64,000 nt of DNA from Sulfurimonas sp. HSL1-2 (lineage in GTDB: Bacteria > Campylobacterota > Campylobacteria > Campylobacterales > Sulfurimonadaceae): the NCBI RefSeq assembly GCF_039645565.1, contig NZ_CP147914.1, positions 1,485,573 through 1,549,572 of the forward strand, in the 5' to 3' direction. The translations under genes and the position numbers were made by a program. A model generated the notes under the pieces. The model was not told the DNA's origin, did no database searches, and worked only from the letters and a program-made list of their open reading frames with translations. This document shows, in pieces, positions 1-18,842 of this stretch. Position 1 is the stretch's first letter, and each line of letters begins with the position of its first letter.

Positions 1-1
1 G

Positions 2-1162
2 CGCAAGGAGCTGGAAGACTTCATCGCCCGCAACAAGGCGCGTGCCTCCACCGCGGCGCTGGCCCAGTCCAAGGTCAAGCAGCTCGAGAAGATGGGGGAG
101 ATGGACGACCTCGGCTTCGACCCCACGCTGAAGTTCGACTTCAACTTCAAGGAGACCCCGGCCAAGGTGCTGCTGGAAGTCAAAGACCTCAGCTTCGGCT
201 ATACGCCGGAGCACCTGCTTTTCAAGGACGTCTCCTTCACACTGGAGAAGGGGCAGTGCCTCGCCATCATCGGTAAGAACGGTACGGGTAAATCGACCCT
301 GCTCAACAACATCGCCGGCGAGCTCACCCCTTTAAGCGGCGAAGTGGCGTTCCACCCCTCTACCTCCTTCGGCCATTTCGGGCAGACGAACATCTCGCGT
401 CTCAACCCGGGCCAAACCATCATGGAGGAGATCTACGAGGCCAACCCGAAACTCTCCGCCTCCGTCGTGCGCGGCATCTGCGGCGGCATGATGTTCAGCG
501 GGGACCTCGCCGAGAAGAAGGTCTCCCTGCTCTCGGGCGGCGAGAAGAGCCGCGTCATGCTCGGCCAGATCCTCGCGCGCCCGGCGAACCTGCTCTTCCT
601 CGACGAACCGACCCACCACCTCGACATCGACTCCATCGAGGCGCTGATGGTCGCCATCGAGAATTTCCAGGGCTCCTGCATCATCGTCACCCACTCCGAG
701 GAGATGCTCCGCCGCGTCGCCGACCGGCTCATCATCTTCTCCAAAAACGGGGCCGAGTACTTCGACGGCGGCTATGACGACTTTCTGGCGAAGATCGGCT
801 GGGGCGAGGAGGACCAAGTAGAAAAGGTCAAAACCGCCCCCAAGAACAACTACAAGGCGAACAAAAAAGAGATCAACGCCCTCACCCGCGAACGCTCCAA
901 GGCGACCGCGCCGCTGCGCAAAGCGGTAGAGAAGCTGGAGAAGGCGATCATGGAGGGCGAAGCACGTATCAAGTCGCTCCATGCGGAGCTTGTGAGCGCT
1001 TCGAACAGCGGGGACAACTCCAGGGTGATGGAACTCCACCAGACCGTTGCCAAAGAGGAGAAGGCGGTAGAGGCGGATTTCGAACGCCTCTCCGAAGCGC
1101 AGGAGGAACTCGACGAGCTCATGGCAAGCTACGAGATGCGCTTCGCGGAGCTGGAGGGGTGA
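2..1162 (+). CDS. ABC-F family ATPase, 5'-truncated by the window edge
   Basis: The reading frame is open from the first bases, so this is the C-terminal part of a larger protein; an in-frame ATG at 92 is internal. The second ABC domain is complete: Walker A GKNGTGKS, signature LSGGEKSRVMLGQIL, Walker B LLFLDEPTHHLD and a switch His in IVTHS. A Lys/Glu-rich coiled-coil tail follows, as in Uup-type ABC-F proteins. There are no membrane segments. ABC-F proteins act on ribosomes or nucleic acids, not in transport; which subtype this is cannot be told without the N-terminus. It is GC-rich like most of the window and converges with the AT-rich island that begins 24 nt downstream. Confidence 0.9.
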   Translation, partial: RKELEDFIARNKARASTAALAQSKVKQLEKMGEMDDLGFDPTLKFDFNFKETPAKVLLEVKDLSFGYTPEHLLFKDVSFTLEKGQCLAIIGKNGTGKSTLLNNIAGELTPLSGEVAFHPSTSFGHFGQTNISRLNPGQTIMEEIYEANPKLSASVVRGICGGMMFSGDLAEKKVSLLSGGEKSRVMLGQILARPANLLFLDEPTHHLDIDSIEALMVAIENFQGSCIIVTHSEEMLRRVADRLIIFSKNGAEYFDGGYDDFLAKIGWGEEDQVEKVKTAPKNNYKANKKEINALTRERSKATAPLRKAVEKLEKAIMEGEARIKSLHAELVSASNSGDNSRVMELHQTVAKEEKAVEADFERLSEAQEELDELMASYEMRFAELEG

Positions 1163-1185
1163 TCCTCCTCGACTTCGTCCAAAAG

Positions 1186-2067
1186 TCAAACTTCTAAATA
1201 TTCTTCTTTGTAGCGCTGCAAATTTATAAAGTTTGTATTTGCACAATAAATTATTGGTTTACCTGTAGAAGCCACTTGGGATCTTCCAACGACTATAACA
1301 TGGGCACCATTTAACTCTTCTAGATTTTTTATTTTGAAAGCATCTATAAACTCATCCGCCTTGTCTGGAAATATTTTTATACTCAGCTCTTTTTTTGAGT
1401 CCCCCGCATTGAGCCAAATAGTTCCGTCTGAACTCTTATTGGCAGTAACAATCAATCCCCAATAAATTTTATGTTCACGACCTTCACTTGGTTTAAAATC
1501 ATCAAAATTGACAATTTCATTTCTGACAATTCCATCGATTTGAATTGCACCTGCTGATGAATAGAAACGTATTTTTTTATCAGAAAATCGGAAATTTTGA
1601 TATCTTACTAACGAAGCCAACACCTGTCGTAATGTTTTATCTTTATTAGTGTAATTTTTACCAGCCAAACCCTTAACATTACGTGTACCACTCGGATCAG
1701 TGTCATCACTTGTCTCTTTCTTATTTTCATTAGACAAGTCCGCGATAACACCACCTTTTTTTTCGTCCAGATTAACCGCAATTTCATCTGCAGTAGTGAC
1801 AGTTTCTGTAGTCGAAGGCGCAGCATCTCGTTCATCTTCAACAAGTACATAACTCGTTTTTTGGCTACATCCTTCTTTGTGATGAGAATTAAAATAAGCT
1901 TCCCTATCTTTTATCCCATTCTGAGTTGAACGAGTAAACCATGCTCTTTCTTTACATTCGACACAAAAAAGACTTGCCCTTTTTTCTTGTAGTTCATCAT
2001 CAGGTAGCTTTTCAAAATCTCTTGCAGAATATTGTTTATTATCACTTTTGCAAAAGGCATATCTCAT
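1186..2067 (-). CDS. Putative zinc-binding protein, last gene of the AT-rich island operon
   Basis: About 293 aa, function not recognised. The N-terminal part carries a possible zinc site (C6, C35-x2-C38, H62/H63, C67), loosely like the zinc region at the start of CoiA-type proteins. A Ser/Thr/Asp-rich linker (about 75-135) follows, then a C-terminal beta-rich domain with the segment HVIVVGRS. The ATG at 2067 is preferred over 2073 because GAGGA lies six bases ahead of it, whereas at 2073 the same motif abuts the codon. The gene starts 15 nt after the stop of the DUF2130 gene, so it is probably co-transcribed. It is strongly AT-rich compared with the ABC-F neighbour. Role in the island is inferred from position only. 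Confidence 0.7.
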   Translation of the reverse strand: MRYAFCKSDNKQYSARDFEKLPDDELQEKRASLFCVECKERAWFTRSTQNGIKDREAYFNSHHKEGCSQKTSYVLVEDERDAAPSTTETVTTADEIAVNLDEKKGGVIADLSNENKKETSDDTDPSGTRNVKGLAGKNYTNKDKTLRQVLASLVRYQNFRFSDKKIRFYSSAGAIQIDGIVRNEIVNFDDFKPSEGREHKIYWGLIVTANKSSDGTIWLNAGDSKKELSIKIFPDKADEFIDAFKIKNLEELNGAHVIVVGRSQVASTGKPIIYCANTNFINLQRYKEEYLEV

Positions 2068-2099
2068 CTTCATTCCTCATCTTCATTCCTCATCTTCAT
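2063..2099. repeat. 13-bp tandem repeat at a gene junction
   Basis: The unit CTCATCTTCATTC occurs just under three times. It covers the end of the DUF2130 gene (acidic ...HEDEE tail) and the ribosome site and start of the next gene. On the coding strand each unit contains both GAGGA and ATGAAGATG, so the repeat supplies several alternative ribosome site/start combinations. Copy-number change would alter the C-terminus of one protein and the start of the other. Confidence 0.7.
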
Positions 2100-3558
2100 G
2101 ATATGGCAATTCAAGCGTTTTAATATGCCCTATAGCATTCCCTGCAATTCCACGAATAGAACCATACATTCCAATTGTATTTTCAAGCACTTTATCTATT
2201 TGTTTTTCGCGTTGTTTCCAGATACGGGCCATCGCGCGTTTTTCTGAATCAAGATCGCTTTGCATCTGTGTGAACCCTTCAACAATAGCCTCAATTTGCA
2301 TTCTGAATTCATTGCTTGTCAGATAGCCATAGAGCAAACTCATTTTGTCAGTTTTATTTTCTTCTGACTGAACAGCATGCGCTAATCGAATAACACTTTC
2401 ACGCAAAACGGCTGATAGCCCTTTAAACTCTTCATACGAGCATATCCATATTCCGTCCATCAACTGCATACGGTCAACGCCTGAAGGCATAGCGCTGCTC
2501 ACCAACACACCAATGTCTGCACCTTTATCTCTCATATCAGCCTTGAACTTTTCTACCCATGCGGGTTGAAAATCTTTTGTACGTTTGCTCTCATAGTAGA
2601 TAGTTCCGCAGTTTTGCATTTCACGAGTATGCACTGTCTGAATACAGTCACCACCTCTAGCACCCTTTTTAATCTCTTCAATTGAATCAAATGGATACTG
2701 GACCGTCAGCCATTCTTCAATAGCCAATTCTTGTGCTTCACCCTGCAACTGCATAGAGCCTTGTTCTGCTTTGCGCTGTGCTTCTGCAAGCTGGCGTTTT
2801 AACTGTTCAAGATGTTCGTCTTTTTCCTTGAGTTTAAGCTCGACTTGTTCAGTGGCCAGCTTTTGAATCTTCTCTTTTTCGCTTTTGAGCTGTTCGGTCA
2901 GTTGTTGCTGAGCTTTAACTTGTGCTGCTTCCTCGACCTCATCAATCTGTCGCTTGAGCTGTTCTATTTCCACTTTTGAAGCATTGAGTTCTTTAACCTG
3001 TTCGGTCTTAGTCTGCAATTCTTTTTGCAATACTTCCAATTGCCCACTCATTTCTTCTGCAAACTGCTCTTTAAGACGTTTTTCTGTCTTTTCACGTTCG
3101 ACTTTGAGAGATTCGTTGATACGCTTTTGAAGCTCTGCTTCGGTTTTTTCGGCTATTTCCTCTTTTTCCCGTTTAAGCTGTTCGATCTCCACTTTGGTTC
3201 GATTGAGCTCTTTGACCTGCTCAGACTTTTCAGCAATCTCTTTTTGAAGCACAGCCATCTGCTCACTCTGCTCATCCAAAATCTGTTTTTTCAGTGCATC
3301 GGTCAATTTCTGTCGTTCGGCCTTGAGCTGTTTGGACACACTTTCTCTTAACTGTTCTTCGAATTTCTCTTGCTGGTTTTTAAATGCTTCTTCTTTGGAC
3401 TTGAGAGCATCCATAGCTTCTTTATATCTTTTCCGATGTTCGTTAACTTCACCATCGAATTTCTTTTTCATTTCATCTTCAAGCTGATGGTAAAGAATTT
3501 CGTTGATGTCGATTTGAGTGCCACAGTTCGGGCATTGAATTGTAGTTTGATTAGACAT
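2083..3558 (-). CDS. DUF2130 protein: zinc-ribbon-like N-terminus, long coiled coil, PD-(D/E)XK-like core
   Basis: 491 aa. It begins with CPNCG (C9/C12), continues as a long Lys/Glu/Gln coiled coil (about 30-265) and ends in a globular domain that matches the DUF2130 family as I know it. That domain shows a nuclease-like pattern: Glu in QELAIEEWL, GGD at about 302-304 and YESK at about 322-325, which fits E...D...ExK. The start at 3558 overlaps the stop of the upstream ATPase gene by 8 nt (ATGTCTAA), so translation is probably coupled. A longer in-frame start at 3624 lies inside the ATPase gene and is unlikely. It is AT-rich like its operon partners. Nuclease activity is inference from the motif; biological role is unknown. 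Confidence 0.85.
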   Translation of the reverse strand: MSNQTTIQCPNCGTQIDINEILYHQLEDEMKKKFDGEVNEHRKRYKEAMDALKSKEEAFKNQQEKFEEQLRESVSKQLKAERQKLTDALKKQILDEQSEQMAVLQKEIAEKSEQVKELNRTKVEIEQLKREKEEIAEKTEAELQKRINESLKVEREKTEKRLKEQFAEEMSGQLEVLQKELQTKTEQVKELNASKVEIEQLKRQIDEVEEAAQVKAQQQLTEQLKSEKEKIQKLATEQVELKLKEKDEHLEQLKRQLAEAQRKAEQGSMQLQGEAQELAIEEWLTVQYPFDSIEEIKKGARGGDCIQTVHTREMQNCGTIYYESKRTKDFQPAWVEKFKADMRDKGADIGVLVSSAMPSGVDRMQLMDGIWICSYEEFKGLSAVLRESVIRLAHAVQSEENKTDKMSLLYGYLTSNEFRMQIEAIVEGFTQMQSDLDSEKRAMARIWKQREKQIDKVLENTIGMYGSIRGIAGNAIGHIKTLELPYHEDEE

Positions 3559-6500
3559 TGACTGTCCTATAATATTTTCTCGTTCGATTATCAAATGCAG
3601 GGAATGTCCCCTCAAGCACCTCAACTATTTTTTCGTTAATTTCTTTAGCTTCAATTGCTCCTAACACATATGAGACCTCGTTTTTGTTTGCTTTATCGAT
3701 TTTAGAGTATATGATTTGTTCTGCATCTGATACAACTGCAATATTCGGGTTATGTGTGACAATAATAATTTGTCTTCTTTGTTTTGCACGTTTGATATAT
3801 GGCACTAAATATTCAAAAACAGATTCATTGTCCAAATTATCTTCGGGCTGATCAATAATTAGCGGTATGTCACCTTTGTCAATCAACAAGTAAAAAATGA
3901 TCAGTAACGCACCTCTCTCACCAGGTGACAGTTGACTAACTGTCTTGCCATCTAACTTGATGTCGTATTCAATAGCAACATAGCTCATATCCCATAATAC
4001 GACATAAAAATCTAATGTTTTTTTGTAATCTCTAAATTGCTGTTCTATAGGTTTTTTGTCATTTATTATGTTTTCAATTCTTTGCAATAAACGGCGCATG
4101 CTTTTTGCATCAAAGAGGTTATGCTCATCAATAAGTTCAATCACATCTTTATCGTCAAATCTTTTTCGTCTATTATCAAAAAAGTCAAGCAGCTTACTTG
4201 TAAATTCCTTCTTCTTAAATACTAAATTGGTTGTAAATTCTATAAAGCCTTTTGTGGCATTCGTCTTTTTTTTCTCATCTTCAATGAACTGTAGGACTGG
4301 CTTGTACAACTCTTCGTATATAGCTAATTCTTGTTTATATGTGTCATGAAGTTGAAAATACGCCTGCAATAAATCACGCTTGATTTTAAAAACCTTTGCA
4401 GGAAGTTTCTCTTTCTTAAATATAATTCTTTCTTCTATCCTGTTTTTTTGAGCAATGAACTCACGCTTTTTCGCTTCCCACTGTTGCATTTGCTCGACAT
4501 ATTTTTGATATGCTTGCTGTACTTCACTCAGGGCATTTGTCAGACCATCAATATCAACTTTTTTCTTCTCAAGCATTTGATCGACGACTGCAATCTTCAC
4601 CTTCCGAGCACCAATGGTTTTAGTAATGGTTTCAATTTTTGAATCAATCAAACTAGTATCGAAAGAGAGCGTCACCATTTGATCTATGTCCATTTCAATC
4701 TTGGCCTCGAAAAATTTCTGATTTACTTCTTGTAAGCGTTCTTTGAAACTTTCAACTTCTTGTTTTAAACTTTGTAAAGTGTTTTCAAGAATATTTTTTT
4801 GTACTACATATTCTTTTAATTGATTTTGCAGTTTCTCTTTGAAGCTTTCCAAAGTTAGTGCATGTTTATTTAACCTAGTGATCTTTTTGAACTGTTTTTT
4901 TTGTTCGTCCTGAACCTGTTCATCATCTTCGGGTTTTTTTACTTCAATGATGTTTTCATTCTTGTACTCTTCATGTTCGTCTATTTCTTTATTCTTTTCC
5001 CTCAAAGCATTTTCAACCTTTTTCATCTCAAGGTCGCTATAGTCTGTTCTTAAGGCAATTAATGAATCAAATAAATTTTTTATGTTTTCACCAAGTCGTT
5101 CTCTTCGTTCTTTTACCGCGTCAGTCTTTTCTGAAATCAATTTGCTTAAGTTCTGTTTTCCGAGCTTTTCTTCCTCATCTATGTGAGAAAAGACTACTTT
5201 GTTTATTTCATCTTGAAAATCTTCATAGTTTTCACTAGTACAGATTGTTTCAATATATTTTTGAGGCAAGTACTTGACTCTCTCAATTTCGTCAATTTTA
5301 AAAGTCTCATCCAAATTAACTGTACTTTGGTCTTTATCCTCCCACAAAAGTGTTGCCTCAAAATTTTTTGCCAAGCCATTTCGTCTAAATTTTTCTTTTG
5401 TCAAGAACACATAATCCGTATGATTAATTAACTGTGCATTACCAGTCAAAGCAATAATATCGGCCAAAGCACTTTTCCCATTGCCTTTATTACCAATGAT
5501 GGCAACAAGGCCGGGATTGATATCGAGTTCGTTGTCGAACCACAAATCAGATAAGCGACTTGCTGAAGTTTTCGTGATTTTAACTTTTGAGATATATTTA
5601 GATTTATTTAGTAAAACCGTTTGTCTTTTTGGGGGATTCTCTCCAAGAAACACCCGTTCTCTTGGTTCATTTACAACTTGCTTTAGACCTACAAAATTTG
5701 GGTTAGCTTTTATCCATGTGAATCTATTATTCGCTGGTATGAATAAGTTCTCATAGCCATGCGCATCGGAACCCCATATGCATACTTTGATACTTTTGAA
5801 CTCTTTGATGTAATCTTCTTCAGTTTCATTGAATTCACCAAGACCCCACTTAATAGTTTTAGGATTAGAAGCGAAAAGCATATCGGCTTTTTGCAAAATT
5901 ACTTTTCGTACATTGTGATCTTGGCTTTTCCAGTTTATTACACTAAGGTCTTCGTCAGAAGGGACTACAATCAAATACTTATCTTTGAATTTAGATTGCT
6001 TATTCTTTAAAATGTCAAGTATCTGAGTATCATCAACGACGGCACATTTTAGTCCTACAAATAATTCACTACTTCCTAATTCAGGTTGTTCTTCTATTAG
6101 TTTTTTGCCAAGCTCTTTAATATTTGGAATCTTTAATTTCCACTTCTCATCACTACCTTGAGGATTGCCTTCATAGATAAACTCTAACTCATGTAAAAAG
6201 TTTTCTTCTATATCTGTGATTGAAACATCATCTGAAAAAATTACATGAAAATTTACTCTATTCGTACCAATTATTTTGTTGAGCCTAAACTCTATATTGG
6301 GAAGTATTTTTATAGTTTGAATCTGTCTAATCTGTTCTTCTATAAAAAGAGATTTGAGTTTTTCATAATTATTCAAATACTCATTTTTGATCTTTTTATA
6401 ACCTTCTATTGAAAAATAATCAGTTATTCCTATCACAGCGATTTGATGTGTTATGGCGTTTAGAAAGAGAGTTTTTACATACTCATCAAAGTCATCACCA

Positions 6501-6580
6501 AATTGATTATTTAAGTATGAATAAGGTGTATGTACATGTAAATCCCATTTGCGCCATTCAGAACCTCGATTAAAATTCAT
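3551..6580 (-). CDS. PHP-domain plus SMC/ABC-like ATPase (TrlF-like)
   Basis: 1009 aa. N-terminal PHP phosphoesterase domain: LHVHTPYS at 14-21, and SDAHGYE near 271-277 as a second metal motif. Then an ATPase head split by a long coiled coil: Walker A GNKGNGKS at about 363-370, coiled coil about 470-790, signature LSPGE at about 884, Walker B LIIDQPEDNLD near 907-917 and a switch VTHNPN near 941. This layout matches PHP-ATPase proteins annotated as TrlF-like, often near restriction or defence genes. ATG 6580 has GGGGGAAAG just upstream; the longer frame from 6616 does not. It lies 16 nt after the winged-helix nuclease gene and overlaps the DUF2130 gene by 8 nt. Substrate of the PHP domain (nucleic acid or nucleotide) is unknown. 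Confidence 0.88.
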   Translation of the reverse strand: MNFNRGSEWRKWDLHVHTPYSYLNNQFGDDFDEYVKTLFLNAITHQIAVIGITDYFSIEGYKKIKNEYLNNYEKLKSLFIEEQIRQIQTIKILPNIEFRLNKIIGTNRVNFHVIFSDDVSITDIEENFLHELEFIYEGNPQGSDEKWKLKIPNIKELGKKLIEEQPELGSSELFVGLKCAVVDDTQILDILKNKQSKFKDKYLIVVPSDEDLSVINWKSQDHNVRKVILQKADMLFASNPKTIKWGLGEFNETEEDYIKEFKSIKVCIWGSDAHGYENLFIPANNRFTWIKANPNFVGLKQVVNEPRERVFLGENPPKRQTVLLNKSKYISKVKITKTSASRLSDLWFDNELDINPGLVAIIGNKGNGKSALADIIALTGNAQLINHTDYVFLTKEKFRRNGLAKNFEATLLWEDKDQSTVNLDETFKIDEIERVKYLPQKYIETICTSENYEDFQDEINKVVFSHIDEEEKLGKQNLSKLISEKTDAVKERRERLGENIKNLFDSLIALRTDYSDLEMKKVENALREKNKEIDEHEEYKNENIIEVKKPEDDEQVQDEQKKQFKKITRLNKHALTLESFKEKLQNQLKEYVVQKNILENTLQSLKQEVESFKERLQEVNQKFFEAKIEMDIDQMVTLSFDTSLIDSKIETITKTIGARKVKIAVVDQMLEKKKVDIDGLTNALSEVQQAYQKYVEQMQQWEAKKREFIAQKNRIEERIIFKKEKLPAKVFKIKRDLLQAYFQLHDTYKQELAIYEELYKPVLQFIEDEKKKTNATKGFIEFTTNLVFKKKEFTSKLLDFFDNRRKRFDDKDVIELIDEHNLFDAKSMRRLLQRIENIINDKKPIEQQFRDYKKTLDFYVVLWDMSYVAIEYDIKLDGKTVSQLSPGERGALLIIFYLLIDKGDIPLIIDQPEDNLDNESVFEYLVPYIKRAKQRRQIIIVTHNPNIAVVSDAEQIIYSKIDKANKNEVSYVLGAIEAKEINEKIVEVLEGTFPAFDNRTRKYYRTVNV

Positions 6581-6596
6581 GTCTTTCCCCCAATTA

Positions 6597-7484
6597 TTAA
6601 TACGTCTGCACTCCAAACTTCAAAAGCATCTTCGGCAACACGTCGTCAAGATTGAAAACATCCTCGTCCGTCAGCTCGATCAGCTTGAAGTTGTATTTTT
6701 CGTAGATCGCCTTTTTCACCCGTTTGCGCTCGGCATATTTCGGATCGTTCTCCAACCCCCAAAACTCAATATATACTTTGCCCGTTGGGATGTAGAAGTC
6801 GCAATATACCTCTTCTTCGATGGGGAGACGGCGTTCGTAGGCGTGGACGATCTCAGCCATGTAGAGCCAGTTATCAATGAGCATCTCGGCCTTGCTTCGT
6901 ACAAAGTGCCCGTCGGTGGCACGGTGCTTGGCCTCAAATTTTGTTCGGAAGTCATCACCTTCGGACTTATCGACTTTGGCCTGCGTCTCTTCGCCTGCAT
7001 CGCCCTGCACTTCTCGTAAAACGGCCTTGAAAGCCTGGTTCTCAAAAATACTCTTAGGCCACTCTACAAAGGGGATACCATTTTTTGTGTTCTCTTTCTG
7101 GATACCGCCGTTCTTCATTCCGAGGGCAGTGATATTCCACCCTTTAAGATAGTGCTCTATCCATCCAAGCTCGGAGAGCATCATATTGATCCGTCTTGCG
7201 GAAAGATTGTATTTCTTGGCAATAGCCGTCGCATTGAAAAAGTCATTTCCTTGCGTAAGAGTCTTATCGGGAAGATCTAGCGTTTCAGGCCAGACTATAT
7301 AAGTACCATATTTGGGATGAGTTTGCCAAGTACCACCTTCATCTTCACCTTTCTTTGTAAGCGAAAAACCATTTTCTGCACGTTCAATAAATCCTGCTGA
7401 AAGAAGAAGTTCGTCAAGTTTGTTTTTCGGGATAGAGAGGTTTTTAGAAAGTTGACTCGTGGATATCAATTTTATGTCAGACAT
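6597..7484 (-). CDS. Tandem winged-helix protein with C-terminal PD-(D/E)XK-like domain
   Basis: 295 aa, first gene of the island operon. Two similar DNA-binding units are visible at about 5-66 and 80-142. Each has a helix-turn-helix (SQLSKNLSIPKNKLDELL; AIAKKYNLSARRINMML), a short wing and a closing WP motif, and they resemble phage antirepressor (KilA-C type) domains. The C-terminal domain has Glu in SKAEML (E200), Asp in CDFYIP (D229), KVYIEFWG (E240) and a basic helix KRVKKAIY (254-261). This fits a PD-(D/E)XK endonuclease fold, but Trp stands where the catalytic Lys is usual. Start ATG 7484 has GAGAAAG upstream. GC content rises toward the 3' end, unlike the other island genes. A role in DNA targeting is inference. 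Confidence 0.8.
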   Translation of the reverse strand: MSDIKLISTSQLSKNLSIPKNKLDELLLSAGFIERAENGFSLTKKGEDEGGTWQTHPKYGTYIVWPETLDLPDKTLTQGNDFFNATAIAKKYNLSARRINMMLSELGWIEHYLKGWNITALGMKNGGIQKENTKNGIPFVEWPKSIFENQAFKAVLREVQGDAGEETQAKVDKSEGDDFRTKFEAKHRATDGHFVRSKAEMLIDNWLYMAEIVHAYERRLPIEEEVYCDFYIPTGKVYIEFWGLENDPKYAERKRVKKAIYEKYNFKLIELTDEDVFNLDDVLPKMLLKFGVQTY

Positions 7485-7503
7485 TACTTTCTCACTGAAT
7501 TCA

Positions 7504-7509
7504 TTATAA
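7504..7509 (-). promoter_or_regulatory. -10 element of the island operon
   Basis: A perfect TATAAT on the minus strand lies 20 bases ahead of the first island gene in a very AT-rich stretch. No good -35 is visible, which is usual for Campylobacterota sigma-70 promoters. Confidence 0.5.
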
Positions 7510-7585
7510 ATACACTGAAGAATAGCTAAAAAATATTTAATCTAATAAGGTTTCAATTTTGGAACTACACCCATTGGGGATCGAA

Positions 7586-7775
7586 TCTTTTTTTTTCTAA
7601 CAAATGGCAAAATAATATGCTGTTCATTCTTTTCTTTTTCATCAGAAAAGAACCAAAAGAAAATCGTCGTTGCGCGAATCACACGCTGCTCCCGGCTTTG
7701 GGCCTCCGCAGCGGCTTTCAAGGCACGCTTAACGACCCTTGGCCTATTGATTAATGAGCTTCGGGAACCGAAGCT
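7586..7775. repeat. Palindromic repeat copy A (right part only)
   Basis: Right half of the interspersed repeat: the TTCTTTTC/GAAAAGAA hairpin, the arm with CCCGGCTTTGGGCCTCC, and the closing palindrome AGCTTCGGGAACCGAAGCT (7757-7775). Homology to the full copies fades near 7580 and the left half is absent; the AT-rich island starts about 100 bases to the left. A short remnant resembling another left end follows at about 7785-7805. Apart from this and the island promoter the 7485-7814 gap holds nothing I recognise. Confidence 0.8.
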
Positions 7776-7814
7776 AGTGAGAGAATGCAAAGCGCATTTA
7801 ATTTAGGAATGCAG

Positions 7815-8198
7815 CTATTTTTGCTGGCGTGCCGCCCTTCTCGCTGCTTTTTCCGCTGCTTTTGCCGCGCGGAACTCTTCCATATCCATCGTTTTTATCT
7901 CTTCGATAATTTCGACAAGCTCCTCTTCCGAAAATACGCCCGGTTTTTTGAAAACGACCGTTTTCTCCTTCATGATCACCGTTGTCGGCGTGCTTGAGAT
8001 AAAGAAATGATCCGAAATACTCGTTTCCACCTGGGAATTGAGCTTAGTGAAGGTGATCTCGGGGTATTTTTCAGACGTCTTTTCAAAGATAGGGGCAAAC
8101 TGTGCGCACGGTGCACAAAAATTTTGCCAGCAATCTATGATCACAATCTCGCTGCCGTCAACGGTATTATCGTAATTCTCTTTTGTCAATTCGAGCAT
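7815..8198 (-). CDS. Thioredoxin-family protein with CAPC active site
   Basis: 127 aa, cytoplasmic (no signal peptide). The thioredoxin fold is clear: IVIIDCWQNFCAPC with the active site at about 29-32 and the cis-Pro loop STPTTVIM. The active site CAPC differs from the usual CGPC. After the fold there is an unusual Ala/Arg/Lys-rich C-terminal tail. It is paralogous to the thioredoxin at 9525, which shares the tail layout, and lies 31 nt downstream of a rhodanese gene on the same strand. Together they suggest a sulfur-transfer or thiol-redox pair; the partner is unknown. Confidence 0.9.
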   Translation of the reverse strand: MLELTKENYDNTVDGSEIVIIDCWQNFCAPCAQFAPIFEKTSEKYPEITFTKLNSQVETSISDHFFISSTPTTVIMKEKTVVFKKPGVFSEEELVEIIEEIKTMDMEEFRAAKAAEKAARRAARQQK

Positions 8199-8229
8199 CT
8201 GTTATTTCTCCTGCTTTTGCTTTTACTTA

Positions 8230-8592
8230 CTAGACCGTTTCCAGACCTTTGTCGATCCAGCCCCAGTTGATCCCGCCGTCGAGCTCATAGACATTTTTGT
8301 AGCCCAGTTTCGAACCCATAATCTCACAGGCGACTTTCGTCCGGCTGGCATGGGCGCAGACCATGACAAAAGGCTGTTCCTTCGTCGTCACGACCTTCGA
8401 AAACGACTCCAGGAAGGCGTCGATGTCGAAGCCGCCCATCGCGTCAAAAAAGGTGATCTTGTGGCTCCCTTCGATGATGCCGTCTTCTTCCCACTCTTCG
8501 GCTCTTCTGATGTCGATGACAGTGAAGCCTTCCTCTTTTTTCTTCTGGAACTCCTTGGTCGAGAGCGACTTGAACGGTCCGAAATTTAACAC
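8230..8592 (-). CDS. Single-domain rhodanese-like sulfurtransferase
   Basis: 120 aa, one rhodanese domain. It contains VIDIRRAEEWEEDG and the catalytic loop MVCAHASRT with Cys near residue 80, then the usual LDGGINWGW end. Single-domain rhodaneses carry persulfide sulfur from donors to acceptors; this fits a sulfur-oxidising organism. No signal peptide. It sits directly upstream of the CAPC thioredoxin and the two are likely one operon. The physiological donor and acceptor cannot be read from the sequence. Confidence 0.92.
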   Translation of the reverse strand: MLNFGPFKSLSTKEFQKKKEEGFTVIDIRRAEEWEEDGIIEGSHKITFFDAMGGFDIDAFLESFSKVVTTKEQPFVMVCAHASRTKVACEIMGSKLGYKNVYELDGGINWGWIDKGLETV

Positions 8593-8703
8593 TGTTTCCC
8601 TCCTGGTGGCGCTGCCGTGCGCCGGGTGTTTTTGGGGATATGTACAATAATCATGCCTGACGAGAAGATCCAGAAGAAAATCGAACCTGTAAGCAATAAA
8701 AAG

Positions 8704-9015
8704 AGCTTCGAGCAGTCGAAGCGCATAAAATCAATAGGCTCAATGTCGTTAAGCGTGCCTTGAAAGCCGCTGCGGAGGCCCAAAGCCGGGAGCAGCGTGC
8801 GATTCGCGCAACGACGATTTTCTTTTGTTTCTTTTCTTATGAAAAAGAAAAGATAGAGAAGTGTATTTCTTTGCCACTTTTTTAGAAAAAGTAGCGCAAA
8901 AAGCGGCCTCTCACGAATCGCTCATCCCCTCCCGGTTTTATGCCTCCGGGATGGCTTTCAAGGAGCGTTCGAGGCCAATTCCTAATTGATTGAATGCGCT
9001 TCGGGGACCGAAGCT
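8704..9015. repeat. Palindromic repeat copy B (full length, inverted)
   Basis: 312 bp, inverted relative to copies C and D. It starts with the palindrome AGCTTCGAGCAGTCGAAGC (8704-8722) and ends with CTTCGGGGACCGAAGCT. Between them are both arms, which are imperfect inverted repeats of each other, and the two central A/T hairpins. It fills most of the 8593-9044 gap; the rest of the gap contains only a possible TACAAT element near 8642. Confidence 0.88.
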
Positions 9016-9044
9016 AATGGGAGTTATAGAGCAAAGAGAATGCT

Positions 9045-9353
9045 CTACTCCTCTTCATCCACCTCGTAATCCACGACGTGCATCTCCTCCGTCTTGTCCT
9101 TGATGAAATTGAGCACTTCCAGGCTCTCCTGTTCGACCTTGTACCACATCAGGTGTTCCTTGGTCTTGAAGGTCGCGTAGAGGCAGAGGTCATACGAGTG
9201 CGCCCCGTGGTTGAAGTCCATCCCCACCTGCATCGTCTGCAGCCACTCCACCTTTTCGGGCAGCGCTTCGAGCATCTCTTTGGCCTTGACCATGTTGGCC
9301 ATCTTGTTCAATTCGAGTTTGAACTTATACATTTCAACGTGTACTATCATCAT
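9045..9353 (-). CDS. Dabb-domain (stress-responsive A/B barrel) protein
   Basis: 102 aa. It fits the small dimeric alpha-beta barrel family: N-terminal strand MIVHVEMYKFK, central GMDFNHGAHSYDLCLYATFK, and the motif HLMWYKVEQESLEVLNFI typical of Dabb proteins. The C-terminus is acidic (DEEE). Two adjacent ATGs (9353, 9350) follow a GGGG ribosome site; either may be used. It is monocistronic between repeat copy B and the divergent thioredoxin. Family members range from stress proteins to small enzymes, so no reaction is assigned. Confidence 0.85.
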   Translation of the reverse strand: MMIVHVEMYKFKLELNKMANMVKAKEMLEALPEKVEWLQTMQVGMDFNHGAHSYDLCLYATFKTKEHLMWYKVEQESLEVLNFIKDKTEEMHVVDYEVDEEE

Positions 9354-9524
9354 TCACCCCACTTGGAAAAAATATGCTATCAACGAAAAGTCTGCTTTAT
9401 CCGTTAGCTGCCGAGCGAGTTGCAAAATTTATGCATGAAGCTGGTTTTGTACAACAAAAACTCCCTCAAAATCACCCCTTGAATCTAATTTGCATAGGGC
9501 CGTAAAAACAACCAAGGAGAAAGA

Positions 9525-9908
9525 ATGGCACCAGTAGCACTGACAGCGGAGAACTTTGACAAAACAATAGCGGACAACGAGATCGTCATCATCGATTTCT
9601 GGGCGACATGGTGCGGACCCTGCAAGCAGTACGGCCCCATCTTTGAACGCGTCGCGGAGAACGTTTCAGACATCACCTTTGCCAAGATCAATACCGACGA
9701 GCAGCAGCAACTGGCCGCCCAGTTCCATATCCGTTCCATCCCGACGACGGTGGTGATGAAAGACGAGATCATCGTGTTCCAGCAGGAGGGGGTGCTCTTC
9801 CACGAGAAGCTGCTGGACATCGCGGAAAAGGCGCAGGCCCTCGACATGGACATGGTCCGCGCAAAAATTGCAGAGCAGGAAGCGGCAGCAGCACAGCAAG
9901 AAGGCTAG
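9525..9908 (+). CDS. Thioredoxin-family protein with CGPC active site
   Basis: 127 aa, cytoplasmic. Canonical WATWCGPCKQYGPIF active site near residues 29-37 and cis-Pro loop SIPTTVVM. It has a Gln/Ala-rich tail after the fold. It is about the same length as the CAPC thioredoxin at 7815 and shares its layout, so the two look like paralogues lying on either side of repeat copy B in opposite orientation. The start ATG has AAGGAGAAAGA upstream. A general thiol-disulfide reductase role is likely; with two copies, specialised partners are possible. Confidence 0.92.
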   Translation: MAPVALTAENFDKTIADNEIVIIDFWATWCGPCKQYGPIFERVAENVSDITFAKINTDEQQQLAAQFHIRSIPTTVVMKDEIIVFQQEGVLFHEKLLDIAEKAQALDMDMVRAKIAEQEAAAAQQEG

Positions 9909-9931
9909 TCCCACCTCCCCATATATCAATT

Positions 9932-10242
9932 AGCTTCGCCCCGTCGAAGCGCATTCAATTAAATTGGAGGTTGGCCTTGAGCGCTCCTTGAAAGCCGTCC
10001 TGGAGGCCCAAAGCCGGGAAGGGCGAGCGATTCGAGAAAGGCCGCTTTTTGTGCTACTTTTTCTAAAAAAGTGGCAAAGAACTATTATCTTCATTCTTTT
10101 CTTTTTCATAAGAAAAGAACCAAAAGAAAATCGTCGTTGCGCGAATCGCACGCTGCTCCCGGCTTTGGGCCTCCGCAGCGGCTTTCAAGGCACGCTTAAC
10201 GACAGGTTGCCTATCGATTTATGCGCTTCAGGAACCGAAGCT
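9932..10242. repeat. Palindromic repeat copy C (full length)
   Basis: 311 bp. Left palindrome AGCTTCGCCCCGTCGAAGC at 9932-9950, left arm, two central hairpins, right arm, right palindrome closing at 10242. Any reading frames inside are by-products of the repeat and recur in copy D. Confidence 0.9.
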
Positions 10243-10260
10243 CTTATGAGATATAAAAAG

Positions 10261-10572
10261 AGCTTTGTCGCGACAAAGCGCATTCAATCAAATTGGAGGT
10301 TGGCCTTGAGCGCTCCTTGAAAGCCACCCTGAAGGCATAAAGCCGAGAAAGGGTGAGCGATTCGCGAAAGGCCGCTTTTTGCGCTACTTTTTCTAAAAAA
10401 GTGGCAAAGAACTATTATCTTCATTCTTTTCTTTTTCATAAGAAAAGAACCAAAAGAAAATCGTCGTTGCGCGAATCGCACGCTGCTCCCGGCTTTGGGC
10501 CTCCGCAGCGGCTTTCAAGGCACGCTTAACGACACTGAGCCTATCGATCAATGCGCTTCGGGAACCGAAGCT
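10261..10572. repeat. Palindromic repeat copy D (full length)
   Basis: 312 bp, direct tandem of copy C after an 18-nt AT-rich spacer. The left palindrome is the variant AGCTTTGTCGCGACAAAGC; the rest is nearly identical to C. The 9909-10632 gap is entirely made of copies C, D and fragment E. Confidence 0.9.
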
Positions 10573-10587
10573 AGTATCAGTAAAAAG

Positions 10588-10620
10588 AGCTTTGTCGCGA
10601 CAAAGCGCATTCATTCAAAT
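10588..10620. repeat. Palindromic repeat fragment E (left end only)
   Basis: AGCTTTGTCGCGACAAAGC followed by the usual GCGCATTCA continuation, 15 nt after copy D. The element then stops and the end of the transglutaminase gene begins. Confidence 0.75.
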
Positions 10621-10632
10621 AGAAATCTGTTT

Positions 10633-11442
10633 TTATAACGCACTATCGGAGGGAGGCGAGACCATCCGTTCGACATTGACGGACATATACAGCAGCTCCA
10701 CGGGATCGCCGAACTGGGTGTAGATGGCGACGTCGGCGGCATCCCGTCCGAAAGCAATCGCGATGCGCCCGCCCCACAGGTCGTTTTGTGTCGGGTCGAA
10801 CGTGTACCACCGGCCGCCTACATAGGCCTCAAACCAGGCGTGGAGGTCCATCGGTTCGAGGCTCTCCAGGTAGCCCACAACCATGCGCGCCGGGATTGAC
10901 AGCGCCCGGCAGCAGGCGATGCCAAGGTGGGCCATGTCGCGGCATACGCCGAAGCCGCTCTGGTTGAGCTCGGAGGCGCTGATGATCTGCTGCCCCATGC
11001 CGGGCGCGTACCGGACCGTATTGCGGATATACTCGACGATGGCGGCGCACTGGTCGTAGCCGGCGGCCCGGCCCGCCGTGATGGACCTGGCCATCTCGGT
11101 AAAACGGTCCGATTCGCAGTAGCGGCTGGGGTAGAGGTAGGGGAGCGTTTCGTCGGGCAGCTGCTGCACCTCGACAAAAGGAGCACCCGGGGCCGTATCA
11201 TAGGCCTCCGCGGTTTCAATGTCGACGGAGGTGTGAACGGAGAAATAGCCAGACGGTGCGACCAGCCGCTGGCAGAGGTTGCCGAACATGTCCGTAAACT
11301 CCATCACCGGCACGTTGGGCGACAGAACGTAGTGCTCGCTGGCGACCCACTGCTGCCATCCGCTCCGGGGGCGCAGCATCAGCAGGAATGGCGTCGGAAC
11401 CGGAATACTGAATTCAAGAAAACAAGATGCGTGCAACCACAT
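10633..11442 (-). CDS. Transglutaminase-like cysteine peptidase family protein
   Basis: 269 aa. An N-terminal beta region (about 1-110) precedes a transglutaminase core with the expected triad: Cys in GVCRDMAHL (about 167), His in [10 protein letters not shown] (about 202) and Asp in YTFDPTQ (about 217). No signal peptide or membrane segment, so probably cytoplasmic. The start is supported by AAGGATTGTC. Bacterial members of this family act as proteases or amidases or in peptide cross-link chemistry; the substrate is unknown. An 11-bp palindrome TCACACTGTGA lies just upstream (about 11452-11462) and could be an operator. The gene is flanked on both sides by palindromic repeats. Confidence 0.85.
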
Positions 11443-11599
11443 GACAATCCTTCACACTGTGACAAGTGGTGTTTGCACCCCTGTCCCACCGGTTATTCAT
11501 TATAGCGTGTCACATTACATGCGGGACACAAATAAAAGCAAGTGAATAGAGCCTCTGATGGATTCATATGGTCATCTCTCGGAAAAGCACAGCCTAATC

Positions 11600-11810
11600 A
11601 GCTTCGATATGTCGAAGTGCATTCATCCAATCACAGAATGGTATTGAGATACACTGCTCATTCTTTTCTTTTTACTAAGAAAAGAACCAAAAGAAAATCG
11701 TCGTTGCGCGAATCGCACGCTGCTCCCGGCTTTATGCCTCTGCAGCGGCTTTCAAGGCACGCTTAACGACAGGTTGCCTATCGATTAATGCGCTTCGAGA
11801 AATCGAAGCT
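11600..11810. repeat. Palindromic repeat copy F (left arm deleted)
   Basis: Has the left-end palindrome (11600-11618), then jumps to the TTCTTTTC/GAAAAGAA hairpin, right arm and right palindrome. The left arm is missing. The start is degenerate compared with other copies. Confidence 0.82.
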
Positions 11811-11821
11811 AGTATATAAAG

Positions 11822-12018
11822 AGCTTTGTCGCGACAAAGCGCATTCAATAAAATTAAGAATTGGCATTGAGCGCTCTTTGTAAGCCATCCCGGAGGCACA
11901 AAGCCGGGAGGGATGAGCGATTCGCGAAAGGCCGCTTTTTGCGCTACTTTTTCTAAAAAAGTGGCATGAAAATTATCTACCTACCAATTTGATTGAATGC
12001 GCTTCAAGCATTGAAGCT
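11822..12018. repeat. Palindromic repeat copy G (right arm deleted)
   Basis: Begins 11 nt after copy F with AGCTTTGTCGCGACAAAGC, keeps the left arm and the CTACTTTTT/AAAAAAGTGG hairpin, then closes with a diverged right palindrome (CTTCAAGCATTGAAGCT). Complementary in content to copy F. Together F and G occupy most of the 11443-12069 gap. Confidence 0.82.
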
Positions 12019-12069
12019 GATTGTGGGGATGAAACCCCGTTGAATCTTTTAATATGCTAGACTTCCGCC

Positions 12070-12363
12070 ATGTCAACACAACTCGAAAGCAAGACCGAAC
12101 TCGCCACCAGCGAACCGAAAATGTTCGCCGTCTTCATGCTCAACGACGACTATACGACCTGGGAGTTCTGCATCAAGATCATCAGTACCGTATTTCACAA
12201 GACCATTGCGGAAGCGGACGCCATCACCCATGACATCCACACCAAGGGCAAGGGCCTGTGCGGCATCTACACCTACGAGATCGCGGAAACGAAGGCTTTC
12301 ATGGTTCGGGAGCAGGCCCGTAAAGAGGGCTTCCCCATGCGCTGTTCTGTTGAAGAGCAGTAA
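12070..12363 (+). CDS. clpS: ATP-dependent Clp protease adaptor ClpS
   Basis: 97 aa. The ClpS core is clear: VFMLNDDYTTWEFCIKII, HDIHTKGKGLCGIYTYEIAETK and the closing PMRCSVEEQ. ClpS binds the N-domain of ClpA and delivers N-end-rule substrates to ClpAP in the cytoplasm. In many Campylobacterota clpS lies beside clpA; here the next gene is a TSUP transporter, so ClpA must be elsewhere. A TATGCT -10-like element lies just upstream of the start, right after repeat copy G. Confidence 0.93.
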   Translation: MSTQLESKTELATSEPKMFAVFMLNDDYTTWEFCIKIISTVFHKTIAEADAITHDIHTKGKGLCGIYTYEIAETKAFMVREQARKEGFPMRCSVEEQ

Positions 12364-12408
12364 GACTACAACTTGCAAATATTAAGCATTTAAATCAGTC
12401 TGGTTCTT

Positions 12409-13161
12409 ATGGAAATATCGATTGAAATGCTCATGTTCCTGTTTGCCGCCTCCATCGTCGCCGGCACGATGGACACGATGGTCGGGGGCGGCGGGCTCAT
12501 TACCCTGCCCTCGCTGATGCTCACCGGCCTGTCCCCCATCAACGCGCTGGGCACGAACAAGCTGCAGGGGTGCGTCGGCACGGGGATGGCAACTGTCCTG
12601 CTGCTCAGGAAGTCCAAAATAAGGTGGCGGCACATCAAGCCACTCTTTATTGCCGCCTTTGTCGGCTCGGTCATCGGCACCGTAGCCGTGCAGTTCATCA
12701 GCCAGCACTCTTTGTCACTGGTCATCCCCGTCGTGCTCGTGCTGATCATCGGCTACTTTCTGCTCTACAACCCAAGCAGAACCGCTAACTTCAGCATCAA
12801 AGTGGGTGCGAAAAAGTTTACCTGGCTCGTCGTTCCCGGCATCGGTTTTTACGACGGCATGTTCGGCCCCGGGACGGGCTCCTTCTTCAGCTTTGCGAAC
12901 GTGCTGCTTCGGCGCGCGAAACTGGTGGCAGCAACCGCCACGGCCAAGCCGCTCAACTTCGCCACCAACGTTTCATCCCTCTTGGTTTTCATCCTTTTCG
13001 GCAACGTCGTCTGGCACGTGGGTCTGGTGATGATGCTGGGCCAGGCCATCGGCGCCTGGCTGGGGGTGCATCTGCTTTACAAGATCAACCCGCAGTACCT
13101 GCGCGCCTTCGTCATCGTCGTCTGTCTGCTGATGCTCGCTAAGTACATCGCCTCCTCCTGA
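12409..13161 (+). CDS. TSUP (TauE/SafE) family anion permease
   Basis: 250 aa with seven to eight hydrophobic segments. It contains the family signatures GTMDTMVGGGGLITLPSL near the N-terminus and GFYDGMFGPGTGSFF near the middle, the two repeated half motifs of TSUP transporters. Members export or import sulfite, sulfoacetate, taurine or related anions; in a sulfur oxidiser a sulfur oxyanion is plausible but unproven. It lies 45 nt after clpS on the same strand. Confidence 0.92.
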   Translation: MEISIEMLMFLFAASIVAGTMDTMVGGGGLITLPSLMLTGLSPINALGTNKLQGCVGTGMATVLLLRKSKIRWRHIKPLFIAAFVGSVIGTVAVQFISQHSLSLVIPVVLVLIIGYFLLYNPSRTANFSIKVGAKKFTWLVVPGIGFYDGMFGPGTGSFFSFANVLLRRAKLVAATATAKPLNFATNVSSLLVFILFGNVVWHVGLVMMLGQAIGAWLGVHLLYKINPQYLRAFVIVVCLLMLAKYIASS

Positions 13162-13319
13162 TGTACTGACCCTTACTGGCAGCATTACTTTCAGACCCTT
13201 TCGTTCCCCATTGTCACTTTTTGCTACAATCAGTGAAGGAGTACAGACATTGTCGTCCGGATGCAATACCCCTCCGGATCAATCGCAGCATATCTGCATT
13301 AGCAAGTAAGGAGAGCGCG

Positions 13320-13670
13320 ATGGAACATGTTCAAGAAGTTTTGAAAACCTCCCTGGAGGAGCTTGAAAGGGTGCTGAGCACCAAAACGGTCGTCGGGGAG
13401 CCCTTCGTCATCGAAGGCAACACCCTCATCCCCCTTATCAGCATCGGGTTCGGGTTCGGTGCCGGCGGCAACATCGGCGGCAAAAAAAGCGGTGACGGAC
13501 AGGGCGCCGGTACGGGCGGCGGTGGCGGCATCCGGCCGGTGGCCCTCGTCATCATCAACAAGGACGGCGTCAGGGTCGAACCCATCAAAAGCGGGATGGC
13601 CAGCGTCTTCGAACACCTCGGCGAAACCCTCGCCAAGGCGATGAAGGAGAAAGAGGACGACGACGAGTAG
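13320..13670 (+). CDS. GerW/YtfJ family protein
   Basis: 116 aa. It shows the YtfJ/GerW pattern: VVGEPFVIEGNTLIPLISIGFGFGAGG, a Gly-rich loop, then RPVALVIINKDGVRVEPI. ATG 13320 has AAGGAGAGCGCG upstream; longer in-frame starts lack a ribosome site. In Bacillus ytfJ (gerW) is adjacent to ytfI (DUF2953), and the same neighbour occurs here 9 nt downstream. There is no sign of sporulation genes, so the pair must serve some general role outside spores. Confidence 0.85.
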   Translation: MEHVQEVLKTSLEELERVLSTKTVVGEPFVIEGNTLIPLISIGFGFGAGGNIGGKKSGDGQGAGTGGGGGIRPVALVIINKDGVRVEPIKSGMASVFEHLGETLAKAMKEKEDDDE

Positions 13671-13679
13671 CAGCAGAAC

Positions 13680-14192
13680 ATGCTAACAGTTCTCTATCTC
13701 ATCGCCTTTCTGTTCCTGTTTCTGCTCGCGTTGCTCGCCACTCCCGTCGAACTGAGCCTGCAGCTGGAAAAGGAGGAGACCTTCGACTACAAGGCCAGGC
13801 TGCACTGGTTTTTCGGGCTTATCTCCGTCGACCTGACCGGGCTGGCAAAGAAAGCAGGCACGGTGAAAAAAACGAAGCGCAAAAAGCATAGGACAAAGTT
13901 CCCGGGCGGGAGTGTGTCAGCCCAGAGTGTCACCCGGCTTCTGCGGGGGCTGCGACGCAGCCTGCAGGTCAGGGAGTTCAGCCTTCACGGCCGCATCGGG
14001 CTGGGCGACCCGGCCTGTACCGGAATGCTGATAGGTGCGCTGAAGCCGCTGCTCCTGCCCGCGCGGCAGGTGAGCCTCGTCGCGGATTACGAGGAAGCGG
14101 TCTTTGAAGGCCGCTTCAGCACGAGGGTCCGCCTCGTCCCCCTGCGGATCTTCGGCGTTTTGCTGCGCTTTTTCTTTGCGGGAAGGCGCTAG
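13680..14192 (+). CDS. DUF2953 (YtfI-like) membrane-anchored protein
   Basis: 170 aa. One N-terminal transmembrane helix (VLYLIAFLFLFLLALLATPV), then ELSLQLEKEETFDYKARLHWFFGLIS as in DUF2953 proteins, a basic linker KKTKRKKHR and a C-terminal hydrophobic segment LRIFGVLLRFFF. It immediately follows the YtfJ-like gene. Function unknown; the conserved pairing suggests the two proteins act together at the inner membrane. Confidence 0.75.
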   Translation: MLTVLYLIAFLFLFLLALLATPVELSLQLEKEETFDYKARLHWFFGLISVDLTGLAKKAGTVKKTKRKKHRTKFPGGSVSAQSVTRLLRGLRRSLQVREFSLHGRIGLGDPACTGMLIGALKPLLLPARQVSLVADYEEAVFEGRFSTRVRLVPLRIFGVLLRFFFAGRR

Positions 14193-14249
14193 GATGATCA
14201 CTGCGGCAGGGTGACCGTCCGCGACACCGACAGACGAAAGGAGAACCCA

Positions 14250-14972: not shown

Positions 14973-15102
14973 CACCCGGGAGAGATGCGAATTTCTGCCT
15001 GTATCTACCGTAACCATCCCTACGACCGCACTGGACAAATATAGAGCATCGGGCAGGGAGGAAGCGTATTGATACCTGCGATACCCGCCTTTTCGCAGCC
15101 AC

Positions 15103-15152
15103 TTTCCTTAAAATATAAAAAGTATAATATTCCACAAATATTTTTAAGGAAA
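15103..15152. promoter_or_regulatory. AT-rich inverted repeat ahead of cowN
   Basis: Arms of about 14 bp (TTTCCTTAAAATAT and ATATTTTTAAGGAAA) flank a possible -10 TATAAT, in an otherwise GC-rich surrounding. It sits about 55 bases before the cowN start and is a reasonable operator candidate. I found no convincing sigma-54 -24/-12 pair. Confidence 0.45.
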
Positions 15153-15205
15153 CTAATGACGCTCCGCACCGCCGCGCCCCTCCTCCCTTCCGAAAAGCAC
15201 GCCCA

Positions 15206-15517: not shown

Positions 15518-15595
15518 GCGGCGGCCCCGCCCCTCTTCCCACCATAGGCTACACAAGTGTTACTCCCAATCTCCCCTCTTGACTATCGCAGATAT

Positions 15596-15629
15596 TTGCA
15601 ATATACTTGTTTACTCAAATATATTGCAA
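15596..15629. promoter_or_regulatory. Inverted repeat, likely operator of the MarR gene
   Basis: Perfect arms TTGCAATATA (15596-15605) and TATATTGCAA (15620-15629) with a 14-nt spacer. The second arm directly precedes the ribosome site of the marR-type gene, so binding would block its own expression. Confidence 0.6.
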
Positions 15630-15638
15630 GGATAATCT

Positions 15639-16052: not shown

Positions 16053-16062
16053 GGAGAAGACT

Positions 16063-16976: not shown

Positions 16977-17021
16977 ACGCTGATCCTTTTTACCGTATGC
17001 GTCCACACATATCATAGTATC

Positions 17022-17230: not shown

Positions 17231-17244
17231 AACAAAAACAAGAG

Positions 17245-18793: not shown

Positions 18794-18842
18794 TGCTTCC
18801 TGCCTGCACCCGCCATCGGTGCGGCAATGGTTAAGATGGATG

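What the first reader, a model, noticed from the sequence alone, without database searches (positions are those of the whole stretch)
1186..7484. AT-rich four-gene operon with PHP-ATPase, DUF2130 and a winged-helix nuclease: candidate defence system
Seen: four minus-strand genes with overlaps or tiny gaps, one upstream -10, and composition far more AT-rich than the rest of the window. Known: PHP-ATPase (TrlF-like) and PD-(D/E)XK proteins often act in anti-phage or anti-plasmid systems. Inference: ATPase, two nuclease-like proteins and a zinc protein form one unit. I do not recall this exact gene set as a named system.
Basis: partly seen in the sequence, partly recalled or inferred. Interest (0 to 1): 0.8.

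Follow-up and report, generated by a model that had tools for sequence, protein, structure and literature searches.

The report
TrlF–DUF2130 defence pair plus accessories
A horizontally acquired four-gene operon carries a probable anti-virus core of two recurring partners (a PHP/SMC-type ATPase and a DNA-cutting-like protein), flanked by two genes that elsewhere live alone or with other defence systems; the exact four-gene set was found nowhere else.

Summary
In detail: four minus-strand genes (A 6597-7484, B 3551-6580, C 2083-3558, D 1186-2073), spaced +16, -8 and +9 bp, 33-45% GC in a 58% GC genome. A is PADLOC candidate PDC-S69 (winged helices plus a PD-(D/E)XK-like domain). B is a TrlF-family PHP/SMC-type ATPase. 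C is DUF2130 (zinc ribbon, coiled coil, PD-(D/E)XK-like core). D has no known family; it looks like a zinc finger plus OB fold.

The four genes together were found nowhere else. A homologues are not beside B, C or D in the 20 Campylobacterota loci read. B-C is a genuine recurring pair: DUF2130 follows TrlF at 4 of 80 genomic TrlF loci, in at least four places on the TrlF tree. In one genus, all 11 DUF2130 genes read precede an exchangeable SMC-like ATPase (TrlF 5, AAA_13 6). Window, Sulfuricurvum and a Flavobacteriaceae share one C clade and a broader B clade, which suggests co-transfer. D ends three different operons: this one, a SIR2-HerA operon and a DUF6791/ThiF-DUF6527 operon.

The operon occupies a hot spot: a sister genome has a methyltransferase plus putative restriction enzyme there, and two are empty. 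Most likely: a TrlF-DUF2130 defence core with accessories. Function is untested.

The parts
6597..7484 (-). Gene A: PDC-S69 family, two N-terminal winged helices and a C-terminal PD-(D/E)XK-like (Vsr/DUF559-like) domain
   Evidence: PADLOC PDC-S69 full length E 2.5e-109; ANT/HTH hits; motifs RSKAE 196, CDFYIP 228, YIEFWG 238. The last motif is E-x-W, not E-x-K. Stand-alone elsewhere.
3551..6580 (-). Gene B: TrlF-family PHP + SMC/ABC-type ATPase, 1009 aa
   Evidence: NCBIfam NF045780 626.6 bits, cut-off 350. PHP motifs HVH 15-17, D54, E97, H112, SDAH 271-274; Walker A 363, signature LSPGERG 884, Walker B 907, H-loop 941.
2083..3558 (-). Gene C: DUF2130, CxxC zinc ribbon, long coiled coil, PD-(D/E)XK-like core (D304...E323-S-K325)
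   Evidence: Pfam PF09903 E 8.4e-80; conserved G-x-DC...YESKRTK; AF2 model pLDDT 73; best fold match Hjc resolvase, Foldseek E 1.3e-3, prob 0.99.
1186..2073 (-). Gene D: unnamed family, N-terminal zinc-finger-like segment and C-terminal OB-like barrel
   Evidence: No family. AF2 model of low confidence (pLDDT 54 overall, about 65-84 across residues 150-280) matches OB folds, E about 1e-4. 3'-terminal gene of three different operons.
1163..1177 (+). Stub of the DEDDh-exonuclease-like gene (GTGATCCTCCTCGACTTC...) that follows the ABC-F gene in three sister genomes; left junction of the island at about 1177
   Evidence: Alignment with G302, G191 and G288 ends at 1177; the rest of the 175-codon gene is missing here.
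7592..7778 (.). Partial copy of a dispersed ~300 bp palindromic repeat at the right end of the island

Best explanation
The operon is a horizontally acquired composite. Its core is a TrlF-DUF2130 pair (B+C) acting against invading or damaged DNA. A (a PDC-S69 nuclease-like protein) and D (a zinc/OB-fold nucleic-acid-binding-like protein) are portable accessory or independent cargo captured into the same transcript. Proposed mechanism: TrlF, like its relative Ppl, is kept idle by bound nucleotide and wakes when phage activity drains nucleotides and exposes DNA 3' ends. Its PHP domain then trims single strands while the ATPase arms hold DNA, and DUF2130, a coiled-coil PD-(D/E)XK-type nuclease, makes or widens the breaks. 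D may bind the resulting single strands. Shown by sequence: the architectures, intact TrlF motifs, conserved DUF2130 catalytic-type residues, the recurring B-C pairing, the hot-spot insertion and the independence of A and D. Inferred: nuclease activities, trigger, cooperation and defence.
For: B-C pairing: DUF2130 is the next gene or gene remnant downstream of TrlF in Sulfuricurvum (3 bp), Gracilibacteria L153 (11 bp) and L150 (84 bp), and a Flavobacteriaceae MAG (L085, split DUF2130) among 80 genomic TrlF loci. In one Campylobacterota genus all 11 DUF2130 loci read precede an SMC-like ATPase: TrlF in 5 (one interrupted by IS607-like genes) and AAA_13 in 6, followed by fmt. DUF2130-linked TrlFs fall in at least four places on the TrlF tree. 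C of window, L083 and L085 form a clade (support 0.999) and their Bs lie in one clade (0.95). Hot spot with a methyltransferase + putative restriction gene in a sister genome. Ppl as mechanistic analogue: PMC12904381.
Against: DUF2130 is present in 84 of 249 Campylobacterota genomes, often without TrlF, and lies beside DNA polymerase, ligase or helicase genes on several viral contigs, so it is not defence-specific. About 95% of TrlF loci lack it. The only TrlF phenotype paper found concerns a Photorhabdus temperature-restriction locus and implicates trlG rather than trlF (PMC7554251). Tight spacing of all four genes suggests co-expression, which a pure hitch-hiker view does not explain. No activity was tested.
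Confidence: 0.6

Rival explanations
1. One obligate four-component defence system: A recognises a target through its winged helices, B is the motor and processing nuclease, C and A cut, D binds single strands.
For: Gaps of 16, -8 and 9 bp and one strand.
Against: No second example. None of 20 A loci has B, C or D. None of 87 TrlF loci has A or D. Sulfuricurvum has B-C without A or D. GC of the four genes differs, 33-45%.
Confidence: 0.12
2. A defence island compressed into one transcript: A, B(+C) and D are independent systems or genes stacked by repeated insertion at the hot spot, with no functional coupling, B-C included.
For: Variable site in sister genomes; A and TrlF each commonly stand alone; uneven GC.
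Against: Repeated B-C adjacency in at least four TrlF lineages and shared clades of both partners.
Confidence: 0.2
3. A DNA-repair or stress operon rather than defence: DUF2130 is a chromosomal DNA-processing nuclease, TrlF a repair ATPase, D an OB-fold accessory.
For: DUF2130 beside DNA polymerase, ligase and helicase genes in viral contigs and in a third of Campylobacterota genomes; TrlF linked to a temperature-restriction locus.
Against: Patchy distribution of TrlF (8/298), A (37/298) and D (3/298); location in a site where a sister genome has methyltransferase/restriction genes; TrlF on many plasmids.
Confidence: 0.12

Closest known systems
TrlF family AAA-like ATPase (NCBIfam NF045780)
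   Same: B scores 626.6 bits (cut-off 350) over its whole length; PHP plus SMC-like ATPase; usually mobile, with varied neighbours
   Different: Here followed by DUF2130, which only 4 of 80 genomic TrlF loci share; the Photorhabdus TRL operon instead pairs trlF with trlG (AlbA_2/HATPase)
Ppl (single-gene PHP-ATPase anti-phage exonuclease)
   Same: PHP + ATPase architecture; B matches PADLOC Ppl at E 4e-27 and NCBIfam Ppl at 114 bits
   Different: Far below NCBIfam's Ppl cut-off of 1000 bits; Ppl is a single-gene system
PADLOC candidate PDC-S69
   Same: A matches the full model, E 2.5e-109
   Different: Candidate is single-gene; here it heads a four-gene operon; no published test found
DUF2130 (PF09903)
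   Same: C is a clear member
   Different: No functional description found in the paper library
AAA_13 ATPases (PrrC/RloC-like by recollection)
   Same: Occupy the same slot downstream of DUF2130 as TrlF in one genus
   Different: No PHP domain; not present here
SIR2-HerA systems
   Same: A relative of D (29% identical) is the last gene of such an operon in G116
   Different: No SIR2 or HerA gene in the window operon

Membership tests
TrlF family (NF045780) | Score above curated cut-off over full length | tested here: met
   626.6 vs 350 bits, residues 5-1003
TrlF family (NF045780) | PHP metal-binding motifs and ABC-type ATPase motifs intact | tested here: met
   H15/H17, D54, E97, H112, D272/H274; Walker A 363, LSPGERG 884, Walker B 907, H-loop 941
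Ppl | NCBIfam Ppl equivalog cut-off (1000 bits) | tested here: not met
   114.4 bits
Ppl | NTP-inhibited 3'-5' ssDNA exonuclease | not testable with these tools
   Described for E. coli Ppl in PMC12904381
DUF2130 (PF09903) | Score above gathering cut-off | tested here: met
   268.2 vs 26.7 bits
PD-(D/E)XK nucleases (gene C) | D...(D/E)xK residues on a beta-beta-beta-alpha-beta core | tested here: met
   Invariant D304, E323, K325; model core 292-354; Hjc and restriction-enzyme fold hits, best E 1.3e-3. Activity not tested.
PD-(D/E)XK nucleases (gene A) | D...(D/E)xK residues | tested here: inconclusive
   D229 invariant and E-x-W rather than E-x-K; no structure predicted; matches PADLOC PD-DEXK models at E 3e-11
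PDC-S69 | Full-length model match | tested here: met
   model 1-289/289
PDC-S69 | Stand-alone gene | tested here: met
   20 Campylobacterota homologous loci without B, C or D; the window copy is the exception
Lamassu / MADS (weak ATPase hits) | Partner genes of those systems present | tested here: not met
   Only ATPase-level hits to LmuB, mad3 and mad8; no partner model matched by A, C or D
A-B-C-D as a conserved four-gene system | Same gene set in unrelated genomes | tested here: not met
   collections and ranking are capped, so rare cases could be missed

The most novel reading that the evidence does not exclude
DUF2130 is a general partner nuclease that plugs into exchangeable SMC-like ATPase effectors (TrlF, AAA_13, OLD-like), and D is a portable zinc/OB-fold accessory that can be appended to the 3' end of unrelated defence operons (TrlF-DUF2130, SIR2-HerA, ThiF-DUF6527), perhaps as a shared single-strand sensor or self-protection factor.
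Probability: 0.33. Interest if true: 0.68.

Novelty: new variant of a known kind. Interest (0 to 1): 0.45.

Why it matters
No function of DUF2130 was found in the paper library, although a third of sampled Campylobacterota genomes carry it. A recurrent pairing with a PHP-ATPase related to Ppl, and an exchangeable ATPase slot beside it in one genus, give a direct hypothesis to test. D illustrates an accessory that moves between unrelated defence operons, a pattern that gene-set-based detection tools would not see. The case also shows how an operon that looks like one four-gene system can be a composite of a real pair plus cargo.

Tried and rejected
Viral-contig searches with single proteins A, C and D gave no relatives; an alignment of A also none; the D alignment was too divergent to search with. 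Rfam: nothing in window 1-20000. PDB sequence search: no useful match for A, C or D, and only weak ATPase-level matches for B (AriA among them). Paper searches for DUF2130, COG4487, PDC-S69, TrlF and PHP+SMC found no description of this gene set. I first took the 408-522 aa genes that often follow TrlF for distant DUF2130 proteins. Clustering showed a mixed bag with only L150 a true DUF2130; three of them share a family that looks TrlG/AlbA_2-like by eye, not tested. I rejected the idea that the dispersed repeat is an integron attC array for lack of evidence; it was not tested.

Full report
WHAT IS THERE. Window 1186-7484 holds four minus-strand genes, A to D in order of transcription. A (295 aa) matches PADLOC candidate PDC-S69 over its full length (E 2.5e-109). 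B (1009 aa) is a TrlF-family AAA-like ATPase (626.6 bits, cut-off 350) with PHP and ABC-type ATPase motifs intact. C (491 aa) is DUF2130 (E 8e-80). D (295 aa) matches no family in Pfam, PADLOC, NCBIfam or PHROGs. Gaps are 16, -8 and 9 bp, and each start has a purine-rich RBS. GC is 45, 33, 41 and 35% against 58.5% around. The claimed promoter is only a TATAAT about 20 nt before A; no -35/-10 pair passes the scan.

WHERE IT LIES. The genome is a Campylobacterota member of the family that holds Sulfurimonas: G009 contig 2 has the length of the S. paralvinellae plasmid and its DUF2130 gene at the same position. Four genomes of the same genus, this one included, were compared at the site. G302 and G191 have an ABC-F gene, a 175-codon exonuclease-like gene, a dispersed repeat and a thioredoxin gene, with no insert. 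G288 has a D12-class methyltransferase and a 773-aa protein between exonuclease and repeat. The 773-aa protein has no significant Pfam family and is called a restriction enzyme only from its partner. In the window the four-gene block replaces the exonuclease gene: alignment with the sisters stops at 1177, six codons into that gene, and resumes in the repeat near 7592-7660. So the block is an insertion at a variable site where a sister holds restriction-modification-like genes.

IS IT ONE SYSTEM? A: homologues in 37 of 298 phylum genomes; of 20 loci read with wide flanks, none has B, C or D. On plasmids A also stands apart. B: 8 of 298 phylum genomes. A scan of 85k genomes kept the best 80 TrlF loci, plus 7 from viral contigs. 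None has A or D; four genomic ones have DUF2130 as the next gene or gene remnant downstream: L083 Sulfuricurvum (3 bp), L153 (11 bp) and L150 (84 bp) Gracilibacteria, and L085 Flavobacteriaceae (a small ORF between, DUF2130 split). If a DUF2130 gene sat at random among about 3000 genes, far fewer than one of 80 would be expected; this estimate is mine, and defence-island clustering raises it.

THE B-C PAIR. In genus g18 of the phylum (Helicobacter-like by gene order, from recollection) 11 DUF2130 genes were read. All are followed by an SMC-like ATPase and then fmt: TrlF in L058, L170, L171, L173 (interrupted by IS607-like genes) and L174; AAA_13 in L172 and L175-L179. L179 and L170 were assigned by homology or profile rather than by Pfam. 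On the DUF2130 tree these two kinds are intermixed, so the ATPase was exchanged beside a resident DUF2130. On the TrlF tree, DUF2130-linked TrlFs occupy at least four places. DUF2130 of the window, Sulfuricurvum and the Flavobacteriaceae MAG form a 0.999 clade, and their TrlFs a 0.95 clade that also holds three TrlFs without DUF2130. Window and Sulfuricurvum share 59% (B) and 76% (C) identity and a coiled-coil insertion absent from the other ten C proteins aligned. This suggests the pair moved as a unit. DUF2130 also occurs alone, beside OLD-type ATPase genes, an MmeI-type enzyme and phage DNA polymerase or ligase genes, so it is not tied to TrlF.

STRUCTURE. The DUF2130 model (pLDDT 73) has an N-terminal CxxC segment, long coiled coils and a beta-beta-beta-alpha-beta unit at 292-354. 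Invariant D304, E323 and K325 fall there; the best fold match is the Holliday junction resolvase Hjc (E 1.3e-3), with several restriction enzymes below. The D model is poor overall (54), but its C-terminal half matches OB folds at E about 1e-4, so D is probably a nucleic-acid binder.

GENE D. Three of 298 genomes carry it. In the window it follows DUF2130. In G288 a 75% identical copy follows a DUF6791-ThiF gene and a DUF6527 gene, in the same neighbourhood but at another site. In G116 a 29% identical relative overlaps the end of a HerA gene in a SIR2-HerA operon. Distant relatives sit on conjugative and other plasmids and on Vibrio phage records. D thus behaves as a portable 3'-terminal accessory, on three cases.

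MECHANISM. Ppl, a PHP-ATPase relative of B, is described as a 3'-5' ssDNA exonuclease held off by NTPs and triggered by nucleotide depletion plus 3' ends (PMC12904381). B is related to Ppl but is not a member by NCBIfam's cut-off (114 vs 1000 bits). I propose the same kind of trigger for B, with C as a second nuclease that makes or extends breaks. This is inference. The TrlF name comes from a Photorhabdus temperature-restriction locus in which trlG mutations gave tolerance and no trlF mutations were seen (PMC7554251), so a non-defence role for TrlF is open.

VERDICT. The four-part system is not supported; a TrlF-DUF2130 core with accessory cargo is. New variant of a known kind.

Noticed in passing
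window 7592-7778, 8702-9023, 9929-10251, 10259-10575, 11653-11973, about 17076-17396: A ~300 bp imperfect palindromic repeat with dozens of matches across this genome and its sister genomes, clustered in a few regions; no Rfam match. It borders the variable insertion site.
   Followed up: partly
L052:9080-11871 (G288): D homologue next to DUF6791-ThiF and DUF6527 genes, a ubiquitin-like-conjugation type operon, in the sister genome's variable region.
   Followed up: partly
L053:8629-14786 (G116): SIR2-HerA operon with a D relative overlapping its end, next to an SMC/SbcC-like ATPase and a metallophosphoesterase.
   Followed up: partly
L058, L170-L179: Exchangeable ATPase slot between DUF2130 and fmt in one Campylobacterota genus (TrlF or AAA_13).
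   Followed up: yes
L226, L227, L229, L235: Viral contigs with DUF2130 close to DNA polymerase A, ligase, SNF2-helicase or HerA-like genes, pointing to a replication or recombination role.
   Followed up: partly
window 1163-1177: The exonuclease-like gene downstream of the ABC-F gene is deleted here but intact in three sister genomes.
   Followed up: partly
window 9500-12400 versus L220, L221, L052: The neighbouring stretch also differs between sister genomes (1777-aa protein in G302, three unknown genes in G191), so the hot spot is wider than the operon.
   Followed up: no
L042, L044, L050, L051: PDC-S69 relatives with a shorter, different N-terminus (membrane-helix-like in L042) in one shared genomic context of genus g8, which looks resident rather than mobile.
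   Followed up: no
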